DNA from: Siphonodentalium dalli
Taxonomy: Eukaryota > Mollusca > Scaphopoda > Gadilida > Siphonodentaliidae
NCBI GenBank assembly: GCA_032622095.1
Contig: CP136062.1
Span: forward strand, 132,821,282-132,885,281
Direction: 5' to 3'
Length of the DNA: 64,000 nucleotides
Part shown: piece after piece, positions 32,801 through 44,800 of the stretch
Numbering within the stretch: the stretch's first letter is position 1
How the letters are laid out: each line of letters begins with the position of its first letter
The notes under the pieces: generated by a model
What the model was told of the DNA's origin: nothing
The model's database searches: none
What the model saw: the letters and a program-made list of their open reading frames with translations, nothing else
Position numbers and translations under genes: made by a program

Positions 32801-35800
32801 ATTCAGGAGGGCTTGTTAAGACAACACTGTGTGTCTCGATATACATGTATGTAAAATCGTCTGTGCTAAATAAGCCAATATTCTCCAGAACCAGTCAGTA
32901 TGCACTTGTAACAGCATGGAATTATGTAATGCTTCGATTGCTATATATATGTCTACTAGTTTCAAAATGGAAACAGTGATCTTAGCAATTTATTGAGTAA
33001 CAAATTGAGTCTCAGACCTACATGTACCCTAGATGCATGCAATTTTCCATGCCCTCAAAGGCCCCTCATGCCGTTATACGTTGGCAAGGACGAAGATCAC
33101 ATGAAATCCCTCTTAAGTAATTTTTATTAGATGTTACATGCATAGTTTAATTATTAATTTCAATAGTTCTACTGTGAGACATGTAGTGGAAGGTTATGCT
33201 GTTGGTAGGAGAAGCAAATCTAATTTTAGTCTTTTATAAATTAACTCAGTTCAGTGAAGCCGGTTTGGAAAATTATCTTGGTTTGATTGTTTATATAACT
33301 CAATGCCACAATTAAGTGGCGAATACAGAGTACTAATTAACATATATACATATATTTACAAAAGGGGGCCACTGTTGTCTGGCTTGCCATTTCATGTGGC
33401 AGAAGTGTATAGTTGTACTATCATCATCATCAACATCATCATTATCACCATTATCATCATCATCATTGTTGTCTTCATCATCGTTATCATCATCATCACC
33501 ACAACCACCACCATAATCATCATCATTATCATCGTCATAATCATCATCATAAGCATGATCTTCAAAATCATCATCATCACCATCGTCGTTGTCGGCATCT
33601 TCATCATCATTGTCGTTGTCATCATTATCATTGCCCTCATGAACATCATCATAATCATACAGAAAGGATTAACGATAAGACGTACATGTAAGTATCCTGA
33701 GATAAATTAGCTTACAGTAAGTCACTAATGTATCTCTTTCTATTCTATAGTGCCCTTTGATGAGGATGACAAAGACAGAAGTGTATGGTTTCTTGACCAT
33801 GACTACTTGGAAAACATGTCTGGAATGTTCAAAAAAGTGAATGGTGAGTTTGAGTTAAATCTCCATCTGATGATAAATTTAATAAAATATTGACAATCTT
33901 AAGGAAATATTTAACCCTTTCATTCCTAAATGAATTCATCCATTCAGTCATAAAAGTATATTTTGGAATGGTCTATCATTCATTTGGAGCGTCTCCAGCA
34001 AGCATGAACAGACGACAGACATACAAAAAGATAATGCAAGTGCAGAAAGATTACTATTAATTGGTGGGAAATGTTCAGATAATAATTAAAAACTTGTTTA
34101 TTGAACTTATTATCTGAACATTTCCGAAGGGAACTGCTCATCAATGAGTACTTACCGGTAGTATAGAAAGGGTTAATGACTGTCATATTATTTAACTTCA
34201 ATTAGCAAAGAAACCTGTAATTGCCATTTTCAAAGGCTGCTACTATCTTAGGTCTATTTATATCCCTATCTTAAAAAAAATGAGGGTTGATATATTAGTA
34301 CTAGATTGACTTTGCCTGTCCATTCATTTATTTATTTTACAACAAATTTACATGTTTGATAATATAGAGTATAATAATAACTATATGTCAAATTTAGATG
34401 AGTTAAAAAAAGTTAAGTATAAAACTATAAAATTCAGATAAGTAAAATGTTTAAATAAATCTGTATGCAATTCGGTGAATTGAAAATTAAATGGGCCTTT
34501 AAGTTAGTATATATATCTCATATATATTTTGAAGACCTCTGTCTGTCTGTCATTTTTACAAATCTACGATTCTCGACCGATCGGGACGAAACTTGGTACG
34601 TGTGTGTAGTTTGACCAGGCGGTCGTCGTTGTCGTATTGGCGACCCCGTGCGATGCCTGTGCAGCGCATGCGCAGACGAGATCTCGGAAACAGGTGGAGC
34701 TATCGACTTGAAATTTGCTATGTGAATGTATCTTGCCCCGGATACGAATTTTATCGGGTCGCCGAGCCCGTGCGACAACAGCTTCACGCATGCGCAGACC
34801 AGATCTCGGAAACGGGTGGAGCTATCGACTTGAAATTTGGTTTTTGAATAGCTATCGACTTGAAATTTGGTTTTTGAATAGCCCGGACAACGTCGGGCTC
34901 ATCGGCTAGTCTCCTATATATTTTGAAGACCTCTGTCTGTATGTATGTATGTCATTTATACAAATCTACGATTCTCGACCGATCGGGACGAAACTTGGTA
35001 CGTGTGTGTAGTTTGACCAGGCGGTCGTCAACGTCGTATTGGCGAGCCCGTGCGGCGCCCGCTTCGCGCATGCGCAGACGAGATCTCGGAAACGGGTGGA
35101 GCTATCGACTTGAAATTTGCTATGTGAATGTATCGTGCCCCGGATACAAATTTTATCGGGTCGCCGAGCCCGTGCGACGCCAGCTTCGCGCATGCGCAGA
35201 ACAGATATCGGAAACGGGTGGAGCTATCGACTTGAAATTTGGTATGTGAATGTATCTTGCCCCGGATACAAATTTTATCGGGTCGCCGAGCCCGTGCGAC
35301 GCCAGCTTCGCGCATGCGCAGAACAGATATCGGAAACGGGTGGAGCTATCGACTTGAAATTTGCTATGTGAATGTATCTTGCCCCAGATACAAATTTTAT
35401 CGGGTCGCCGAGCCCGTGCGACGCCAGTTTCGCGCATGCGCAGACCAGATCTCGGAAACGGGTAGAGCTATCGACTTGAAATTTGGTTTTTGAATAGCCC
35501 GGACAACGTCGGGCTCATCGGCTAATCTCATATATATTTTGAAGACCTCTGTCTGTCTGTTTGTCTGTTTGTCATTAATACAAATCTACGATTCTCGACC
35601 GATCGGGACGAAACTTGGTACGTGTGTGTAGTTTGACCAGGCAGTGGACGTTGTCGTATTGCGAGCCCGTGCGGCGCCCGTGACCTTGACCTTCTAAATG
35701 ATCAATTCAAGGTCAAATCGGGTAAAACCGGATGGATTTCGACGGGCACGTTTGTCAGGTACTTTTGTCCGGCAGTGTTTTGGACTGGTCAAATCGTGAC

Positions 35801-41800: not shown

Positions 41801-44800
41801 CAAACAATTTACAAGTACTGACCATGTAATGTTGTTTGTAAGCATGTTAGTACCATGCTTGTTGTTCTAGGGCTATATAGGCAGTTAAAGTGACTCTTTA
41901 GCCTCAGATTTAGCAACATTCTGGATTTCACAGTATCCCGGACCACTTCACAGTGGACCACCGTATTAACGTCCAGGAAACTTATGATCAACGGAAGAAA
42001 TATTTAGTAACAAAATTAATATATTACCCAGTTGTATTATCTGAATAAGAGTAATAAAACAAAAAAACTCTATCACAAATTGGATACTACATGGTGAATA
42101 CTCAATGATGACTACTAGTAGATATCATTAACCTGATTGTTGCATAACATGAAATTGAAAATGGTATCTCATAAATTTCTAATGTCTGAAATACTGTCTT
42201 GTTCTGGCATGTAATCAAATTCATTCCTTCTGGTTATTTCTCATCTTGAATGATTGCAAGTAATGTTAATTTGCAACAATTATCCAAATAAAACTGAATT
42301 TGTTATGATGAATGACATTACTGTTTACTGCTCAGACAATCCCAAATGAAGGTGGCACTATTCTCATTAAATTTCCGAACTTCATCTGGGAGCTTTACTG
42401 CTCAACAAGACGAAACTAAAATACTAATTGTATACTGTTATCACTTACAAATAGATGAACTGAAATAATGTGATGCATTGAGAAATGACATTCAATTCTT
42501 CATTCTGGTCTATCACCATACCAAACCACATCAAAATTTGACAACCGACACTTAACTTATATTGCGAAAACTTTGTATGGACTGAATTTCATAAAGTCGA
42601 ACAGGGCCCATAACTCTGGTAGACATTGGTGGTCACAACCCGCGATATTATGCATATTCGTCCCCCATTTCTGGTCCGTCACCATGCCATAGGGCATCAA
42701 ATATGACAACTGACTCTTGAGTTAAAATTCAAAATGTTTGTACGGACAGACGGCTCGAGACGTCAACTTTATACCCGCCGACTAATATCGGGCAGTATAA
42801 TAACCATATATCTATGTGTATACATAAACAAAAAACAATTCCCCTCCCACCCCATCCCGTTAGATAAGACTAAAGAGTTCTTTGATAATGCACATATAAT
42901 TATGGAACCCCTGACCTGTTTACCACTATTTACACTGGCCAGTGTTCTCTGTCAGACACAACACACTCGATATATTAAGGCTATAATTGGGTCTAGGGCA
43001 ATTTGTGACATATAGTGTACCTACACAATGCTTAATTAATATTGTTGTTAGATACTGAAAACACCAGGAAACACATGGAAATACAGTATATTTTTCGTTT
43101 TTCTGATTTGTGTTTACCAATTAGTAAGGCAGTTAACACAGTTATTGAAGAACGGCTAAAAAAAACTCTGAAATTTTGATAAAAACATGAGAAACGGGGG
43201 GTGGGTCCCCAAAATTTTGGAGGAAAAAAACATTTTTTTTGCAAAAATGGGGTGGTGGGTCCCTCGAGGTCGGAAAAAAACTTTTTGGGCCCTATATGTG
43301 CAATTTTTTTCCAGACCCCCCCCTGGGATTTTGACGAAATTTTATACATAGGGTTACTTTTGTCCACTGGGTGTTTTGGACGGGTCAAATCGTGACCCTG
43401 ACCTTGACCTTCAAAATGATCAATTCAAGGTCAAATCGGGTAAAACCGGATGGATTTCCACAGACACGGTTGTCGGGTACTTTTGTCTGGGCAGTGTTTT
43501 GCACGGGTCAAATCGTGACCCCATTTGACCTTGACATTCAAAATGGACAATTCAAGGTCAAAGCCCGGACGAAGTTGGGTCACCTTCTAGTTATATATAT
43601 ATTTATACCTGTTCTGTTTTTTTTTTCAATGTTATAATCTTTCCTGTCACAACATCAAAACGTTCCCAGGTTTTGAACTGGTGGAGTATGATCTCTAATT
43701 CGTTTTTGAAATTTTCCCCGTATTGAAATAGGTCGATAAATACCCAAAGTACCTTTCTATGAGCATTATATGTCCCAGAAAGATGTATTGAAGTCATAAA
43801 AAAATACAACTTTGAACACAATGTACAAAAACTACCATGTGTATTCATCAGAATTTTGGAAATGGAATGTCTGGAAAAGGTATATAAAGGTACATGTACA
43901 TTGCATTATCTGAACATGAAACTATTAAAAACTTAATGCACTACTTTCTCTTCATTTTAATCATCAAAATTACATAGTAAACCATAAACTTTTCAGAGTA
44001 ACGAAAGCTCTAGATTTTCTTCCCCGTCTGCAGATACAATTTTTACGTGACCGCTGACTAACAAAATTTAACTGGCACAAACGAAACGATCTCAAATGGA
44101 TCGAAACATATAAGAAACAAAGCATGTATTTTCGGTGCTATAAAAAATTTGAGGGTTCGAACGAGCCTTGTACGTTTAAGCTAAATTGAAGTTATAAGAA
44201 GATATTTGTGCCGAAGCTCCCCTGGTGTTCAAAGTATTAAGTGAGCCAGCAGTTTGTTCATACCGGTATGTTAGTGCAGAAGTTTACCTATTGTCAACCT
44301 TATTTTTCAATATTTTTTTCTAAAATAAAGCAGGACTGAGCTGAACCAAGTAGCCGAAAAAGTTCTATAGATATTAGAAATTTTCCGATATCTAAATTGC
44401 AGAGAATTTGATAATGATTGAACATTAAAAAACAAAATCTCATTATGGTCTCAAAGGTATCATAAAAATAGAAACCCATGTTCTGTTAAATACATGTACA
44501 TCCCTTCCATTTTCAGATGACATCAGTTGAAATTGGACTCTTAATGATTATTTATGAGTTAATAGTTTTACTTTGAGTTCAGACATACATCAGGCGTTTA
44601 TTTTTTAGCAATCAAGTTGAAGTATTTGTGGTACTTGACACTGTGTTACCTTTTGTTTTCAGCTAGAGAGAAAATAGTTGGCTGGTATCACACTGGACCA
44701 AAGCTTCATGTGAACGACGTGACTGTCAATGAGTTGATCAGAAGATACTGTCCAAATTCGGTAAGAAATAATATGATTTATTATGTTATCATCTACGTTT

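What the first reader, a model, noticed from the sequence alone, without database searches (positions are those of the whole stretch)
34516..43590. Seamless head-to-tail array of eleven Helitron-like elements from three families
Each unit ends hairpin-CTAG (or CTAA) and the next starts TC with no base between, ten times in a row. Ordinary random insertion would leave host DNA between copies. The pattern suggests either rolling-circle read-through into tandem copies or repeated insertion exactly at the 3' end of an existing element. Alternating families (A,A,A/B,B,A,B,A,C,B,C,B) argue for repeated end-targeted insertion, or for amplification of a mixed array, over simple multimer formation.
Basis: partly seen in the sequence, partly recalled or inferred. 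Interest (0 to 1): 0.75.

Follow-up and report, generated by a model that had tools for sequence, protein, structure and literature searches.

The report
Seamless tandem stack of eleven Helitrons
Eleven small rolling-circle transposons of three related kinds sit end to end in an animal genome with no base between them, probably because new copies inserted exactly at the end of older ones, an extreme case of something already known from bats, maize and fungi.

Summary
At 34516-43590 eleven complete units lie on the + strand with ten zero-gap seams: nine CTAG|TCT, one CTAA|TCT. The CTAG seam pattern occurs 9 times in the window and never in 100 shuffles. Seven end-start combinations share one breakpoint, and a solo copy with B ends at 9229-10019 shows the same termini against other DNA. 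Ends are canonical Helitron (TC...hairpin-CTRR; outer flanks A|T), not HINE/Helentron-like. Subfamilies share the 5' terminus; A and B repeats are distantly related. Best explanation: transposase-made CTAG-TC joints from repeated insertion at a resident element's end, probably its 5' boundary (A^TC, AT-rich). Alternating subfamilies and both ends on every unit argue against a simple multimer. No age gradient was detected, and some copies group by position, so insertion order is unproven and block duplication stays open. Directly abutting Helitrons, even distantly related ones, are already reported in bats and maize: a striking new member of a known kind. No genome was held for the decisive counts.

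The parts
34516..34909 (+). unit 1, A (394 bp); left flank ...tagtatatata|TC
34910..35525 (+). unit 2, A (616 bp), ends CTAA
35526..35870 (+). unit 3, A 5' part joined to B 3' part (345 bp)
35871..36450 (+). unit 4, B (580 bp)
36451..37065 (+). unit 5, A (615 bp)
37066..37790 (+). unit 6, B (725 bp); 3' end has a 1-base insertion
37791..38322 (+). unit 7, A (532 bp)
38323..39551 (+). unit 8, C (1229 bp) with an A-derived middle (about 39178-39462, read by eye)
   Evidence: A-type monomers of u8
39552..40173 (+). unit 9, B (622 bp)
40174..41231 (+). unit 10, C (1058 bp)
41232..43590 (+). unit 11, B (2359 bp including a nested insertion); right flank CTAG|ttatatatat
41695..43325 (.). nested insertion in unit 11: inverted ends CAGGGGGGGGTCTG/CAGACCCCCCCCTG, GGATTTT at both sides (hAT-like by recall)
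9229..10019 (+). solo element with B 5' and 3' ends and a different interior (flanks A|TC ... CTAG|A)

Best explanation
These are eleven non-autonomous canonical Helitrons from three subfamilies that share a 5' terminus and so, by inference, one transposase. Each seam is the CTAG-3'/5'-TC joint that a Helitron transposase makes. The stack grew by repeated insertion exactly at the end of a resident element. Most likely the site was the 5' boundary: the resident starts with T preceded by A, so A^TC is a canonical A^T target, it is followed by AT-rich DNA, and it is the very place the transposase nicks. Shown: anatomy, precise seams, no unit nested in another. Inferred: shared transposase, use of the nicked end as acceptor, growth from the 5' side.
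For: Ten zero-gap seams; the CTAG seam pattern is found 9 times against 0 in 100 shuffles. Seven end combinations with one breakpoint. The array holds 763 A^T sites (600 without the nested insertion) and every unit has at least 3 within its first 30 bases, yet no unit is nested in another. All 12 copies have 75-85% A+T in the first 20 bases. Helraiser inserts at AT, prefers AT-rich DNA most strongly on the side flanking the transposon 3' end, and cleaves exactly before 5'-TC and at the 3' end (PMC4778049 passages). Its circles carry a precise CTAG-TC joint (PMC5876387 passages). Outer flanks of the array are A|T. Against a multimer: u1/u2, adjacent, differ at 15/204 sites while non-adjacent u2/u5 differ at 8/186 in the 5' region, and the B part of unit 3 is no closer to its neighbour u4 (9/186) than to u9 (8/191).
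Against: No age gradient: private changes are 16/406, 20/389, 14/407, 14/403 for B units 4, 6, 9, 11 and 10/185, 4/187, 2/134, 7/181, 5/182 for A units 1, 2, 3, 5, 7; differences not significant (p 0.58 and 0.27). Unit 1, the youngest if growth was from the 5' side, has the most private changes of the A units. Some copies group by position: B {u4,u6} against {u9,u11} (8 of 11 sites) and A {u1,u2} against {u3,u7} (3 of 3 sites); this also fits block duplication. The u2/u3 distance was not measured on its own, and A distances over the repeats and 3' end rest on an uncertain alignment. The solo copy has flanks A|A, not A|T. No genome-wide count was possible.
Confidence: 0.5

Rival explanations
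1. Short stacks formed first, then grew as blocks, by unequal exchange or by transposition that starts at one 5' end and runs past inner 3' ends.
For: C-B occurs twice (u8-u9, u10-u11). B copies group as {u4,u6} and {u9,u11} at 8 of 11 informative sites, other splits 1 and 2, though 4 of the 8 lie within 9 columns; A copies u1,u2 group against u3,u7 at 3 of 3 sites. C8-C10 differ at 31/627 and B9-B11 at 33/465, compatible with one duplication (p 0.15). Unit 3 looks like a deletion across an A-B seam (inference).
Against: u8 and u10 have different interiors. u9-u11 (7.1%) is only slightly below the other B pairs (8.3-10.2%). The first seams still need precise joining.
Confidence: 0.25
2. Different excised Helitron strands were joined end to end by the transposase before insertion, and the mixed concatemer entered in one step.
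For: Same CTAG-TC chemistry as circle formation. Differences in private changes between copies are not significant.
Against: Grouping of copies by position. In the passages read I saw no report of joined strands from different families.
Confidence: 0.12
3. Rolling-circle read-through of one circle made a multimer.
For: Tandem Helitron arrays in bats, Bombyx and plants are attributed to terminator bypass or rolling-circle replication. The adjacent A units u1 and u2 group together against u3 and u7 (3 of 3 sites).
Against: Three subfamilies alternate. u1/u2 are less alike than u2/u5. Every unit keeps both ends, whereas many plant arrays are described as having multiple 5' ends and a single 3' end.
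Confidence: 0.07
4. Assembly artefact.
For: No reads were available.
Against: Compared same-family units differ by about 5-15%, so collapse or stuttering of identical reads would not produce them. Unit 11 carries its own nested insertion.
Confidence: 0.05

Closest known systems
Abutting Helitrons in Myotis (Grabundzija 2016, PMC4778049, passages read)
   Same: [quoted passage not shown] same TC/CTAG ends and A|T target.
   Different: The passage speaks of one Helitron next to another; here eleven units of three subfamilies.
Distantly related Helitrons directly next to one another in bat and maize; tandem arrays in Myotis lucifugus and Bombyx mori (stated with citations in Thomas 2014, PMC4067079, passages read)
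   Same: Different Helitrons in direct contact; tandem arrays.
   Different: Stack length and zero-gap counts are not given in the passages read.
Three Helitrons in tandem in Metarhizium acridum (PMC5148889, passages read)
   Same: Similar two explanations offered: insertion at a 5' end, or rolling-circle replication of a circle.
   Different: Non-canonical (Helitron2-like) elements, three copies; mixture of subfamilies not stated in the passages.
Oyster Cg_HINE / Helitrons carrying satellite-like repeats (PMC7492417, PMC8268682, passages read)
   Same: Layout: 5' box, GT-rich microsatellite, satellite-like repeats, 3' box with palindrome.
   Different: HINEs have subterminal inverted repeats and favour TT; these do not.
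Plant centromeric Helitron arrays (Xiong 2016; known to me only as described in PMC12628747, passages)
   Same: Tandem Helitrons.
   Different: Truncated copies, often a single 3' end; here every unit has both ends.

Membership tests
canonical Helitron (Helitron1), non-autonomous | 5' end TC | tested here: met
   12 of 12 copies
canonical Helitron (Helitron1), non-autonomous | 3' end CTRR | tested here: met
   11 CTAG and 1 CTAA of 12
canonical Helitron (Helitron1), non-autonomous | hairpin just upstream of the 3' end | tested here: met
   a short stem in 12 of 12 folded ends, but z-scores run from -2.66 to +0.26, so structure is weakly supported by energy
canonical Helitron (Helitron1), non-autonomous | insertion between A and T without target duplication | tested here: inconclusive
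   array outer flanks A|T; solo copy A|A; TA-rich flanks could hide a short duplication; no empty site available
canonical Helitron (Helitron1), non-autonomous | mobilised by a Rep/helicase partner | not testable with these tools
   no listed stop-free frame over 225 aa in the window (frames running off its ends not listed); none of the 6 frames scanned matched a Helitron model; no genome held
Helentron/HINE | subterminal inverted repeats | tested here: not met
   exact matches of 7-12 bases between first 60 and last 90 bases: none in 9 of 12 copies, isolated 7-9 base matches in 3; inexact repeats not tested
Helentron/HINE | insertion at TT | tested here: not met
   array flanks A|T, solo A|A
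rolling-circle multimer of truncated Helitrons | inner copies lack 3' ends | tested here: not met
   11 of 11 units have a 3' end

The most novel reading that the evidence does not exclude
A Helitron end is itself a homing target: the transposase nick at a resident 5'-TC end, or at a CTAG|TC seam, accepts incoming elements of any subfamily sharing that terminus, so stacks reinforce themselves and act as traps that hold transposons in one harmless place and seed satellite-like arrays.
Probability: 0.3. Interest if true: 0.6.

Novelty: new member of a known kind. Interest (0 to 1): 0.4.

Why it matters
Directly abutting Helitrons are known but their origin is argued over: terminator bypass or end-directed insertion. 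A stack of three subfamilies, each unit with both ends, argues against a simple single-circle multimer. It gives a concrete locus where insertion order and use of the 5' boundary could be tested with haplotypes and long reads. It also shows one way satellite-bearing transposons can pile up into complex tandem DNA.

Tried and rejected
Looked for relatives: viral-contig scans (7 of 8 allowed) and genome-contig scans (2 of 2). Searches gave none. One search used a wrong spacing (three free bases; the real spacing is two or four); its four loci show no meaningful similarity to the array. One search, with the right spacing, gave one viral contig that matches only over about 20-24 bases, judged chance. 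Searches repeated the spacing error on the window and found nothing; one search corrects them.

Considered and rejected: HINE/Helentron membership; one composite element spanning several units (the ends combine in seven ways and the solo copy shows single-element boundaries); an age gradient that would give the building order (none detected). The 3'-end alignment of A units is poor for unit 1 because of a 30-base tandem duplication there, so I rely on the 5' region. Rfam search of the window found nothing, nor did a permissive search of 1-4500. In one search a non-overlapping fuzzy scan missed two 3' ends (35525, 35870) that searches show. Passages of four further papers were read and carry no weight in the argument (PMC9646362, PMC6213432, PMC10701932, PMC11136912); a fifth, PMC13286980, only repeats the AT target preference, in wheat.

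Full report
What was checked. The window is 64,000 bases with 37.6% G+C. It comes from an animal, judging from a PSMD7-like exon at 52618-53088 (Pfam MitMem_reg, E 1.1e-33; the name PSMD7 and the animal assignment are recalled). No whole genome is held for it, so everything below rests on the window, on failed searches for relatives and on papers.

Anatomy. Eleven units tile 34516-43590 with no base between them. Lengths are 394, 616, 345, 580, 615, 725, 532, 1229, 622, 1058 and 2359 bases, the last including a 1,631-base nested insertion. Every unit starts TCT + 2 or 4 bases + TATATATTTTG and ends in a short hairpin region followed by CTAG (10 of 11) or CTAA (1 of 11). A scan of both strands found 11 of 11 array starts and 10 of 11 array ends plus both ends of a solo copy at 9229-10019; the remaining end, at 37790, differs by a 1-base insertion. 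At those thresholds no end lies inside a unit; two weak start-like matches elsewhere (49195 +, 11337 -) were left. The CTAG seam pattern occurs 9 times, and 0 times in 100 shuffles.

Why the boundaries are real. The ten seams join A|A (2, the second to the A/B unit), A|B, A|C, B|B, B|A (2), B|C and C|B (2): seven combinations with one breakpoint. The solo copy shows the same B-type ends against other DNA, although its interior is different. One composite element spanning several units would not do this.

What the units are. The termini match canonical Helitrons: 5' TC, 3' CTRR, hairpin, A|T at the outer flanks of the array and no visible target duplication, though TA-rich flanks could hide a short one; the solo copy has A|A. 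Hairpin folds are present but statistically modest. Subterminal inverted repeats, which define HINE/Helentron elements, are absent as exact matches in 9 of 12 copies and only isolated 7-9 base matches in 3 of 12. The layout of 5' box, GT-rich microsatellite, satellite-like repeats (122 bases in A, 131 in B) and 3' box resembles the repeat-bearing Helitron relatives of oysters (PMC7492417 and PMC8268682, passages). A and B repeats are distantly related (score 37 against a shuffle mean of 20, reached by 1 of 1000 shuffles); A and C weakly (5 of 1000 shuffles reach it); B and C not detectably (388 of 1000) (one stretch per family, chosen by eye). All units share the same 14 fixed bases at the 5' end. 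I therefore call them three subfamilies, and infer one transposase. No listed stop-free frame in the window exceeds 225 aa, so none looks autonomous.

How the stack formed. The seam is the joint that a Helitron transposase makes when it closes circles: in Helraiser the 5'-TC is joined directly to CTAG-3' (PMC5876387, passages), and the enzyme cleaves exactly at these places (PMC4778049, passages). Chance insertion cannot explain ten exact seams: the array has 763 A^T sites and each unit has at least three in its first 30 bases, and no unit is nested in another. A simple multimer does not fit well: subfamilies alternate, every unit has both ends, neighbours u1/u2 (15/204 differences in the 5' region) are less alike than u2/u5 (8/186), and the B part of unit 3 is no closer to its neighbour u4 (9/186) than to u9 (8/191). 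I favour repeated insertion at the resident's 5' boundary, because there the host A followed by the resident's T is a canonical target, followed by AT-rich sequence, and each insertion recreates it. At the resident's 3' end the target would be G^T. Helraiser prefers AT, with TT, AC and AA as the main alternatives.

Evidence that does not help or goes against. If the stack grew from one end, ages should change along it. They do not detectably: private changes per B copy are 16/406, 20/389, 14/407, 14/403, and per A copy 10/185, 4/187, 2/134, 7/181, 5/182 (p 0.58 and 0.27). Rank correlations with position are not significant. Unit 1, expected youngest, has the most private changes of the A units. 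B copies group by position, {u4,u6} against {u9,u11}, at 8 of 11 informative sites, the other splits having 1 and 2; four of the eight lie within nine columns, so they may be one event. Among A copies, u1 and u2 group against u3 and u7 at 3 of 3 sites, while u3 goes with the distant u7 rather than its neighbour u2; two other quartets give one site each and two none. This fits growth in stages, but also block duplication, as does the repeated C-B pair (C8-C10 31/627; B9-B11 33/465; p 0.15). Against a plain block copy, u8 and u10 have different interiors. In about the last 70 bases array B copies are no closer to each other (1-6 differences) than to the solo copy (2-6), while in a 110-base 5' segment they are closer (8-17 against 19-31); the solo copy has another interior, so this is weak.

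Mosaics. Unit 3 is A at its 5' end and B at its 3' end. Unit 8 is C with an A-derived middle that lacks both A ends. A deletion across an A-B seam would give unit 3; this is inference.

What is already known. [quoted passage not shown] Distantly related Helitrons directly next to one another in bat and maize, and tandem arrays in Myotis and Bombyx, are stated in PMC4067079 (passages). Three in tandem in Metarhizium, with insertion at a 5' end or rolling-circle replication as the two explanations, are in PMC5148889 (passages). Plant arrays of truncated copies, many with several 5' ends and one 3' end, and complex 'shuffled' Helitron loci in oyster are described in the review PMC12628747 (passages). 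My seven accepted paper searches, of whose listings I opened only some papers, showed me no description of an eleven-unit seamless stack of several subfamilies; three papers I looked up are not held, so I do not claim it is absent from print.

Verdict. The finding is real and well described. Its kind is known; its length, the mixture of subfamilies and the presence of both ends on every unit make it a striking case. The 5'-boundary mechanism is my preferred reading at about even odds.

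Noticed in passing
41695-43325: 1,631-base insertion in unit 11 with perfect 14-base inverted ends and GGATTTT at both sides; hAT-like by recall; two stop-free frames overlapping it gave no Pfam match.
   Followed up: partly
56484-58693: Long 24/48-base tandem repeat (about 92 copies of the 24-base unit), open in more than one frame.
   Followed up: no
52618-53088: Exon of a 26S proteasome subunit gene (PSMD7-like by recall), Pfam MitMem_reg.
   Followed up: no
34820-34879: Perfect 30-base tandem duplication in the 3' part of unit 1, read in the sequence.
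   Followed up: no
59110-59399: Tandem repeat of 164 bases, 1.8 copies.
   Followed up: no
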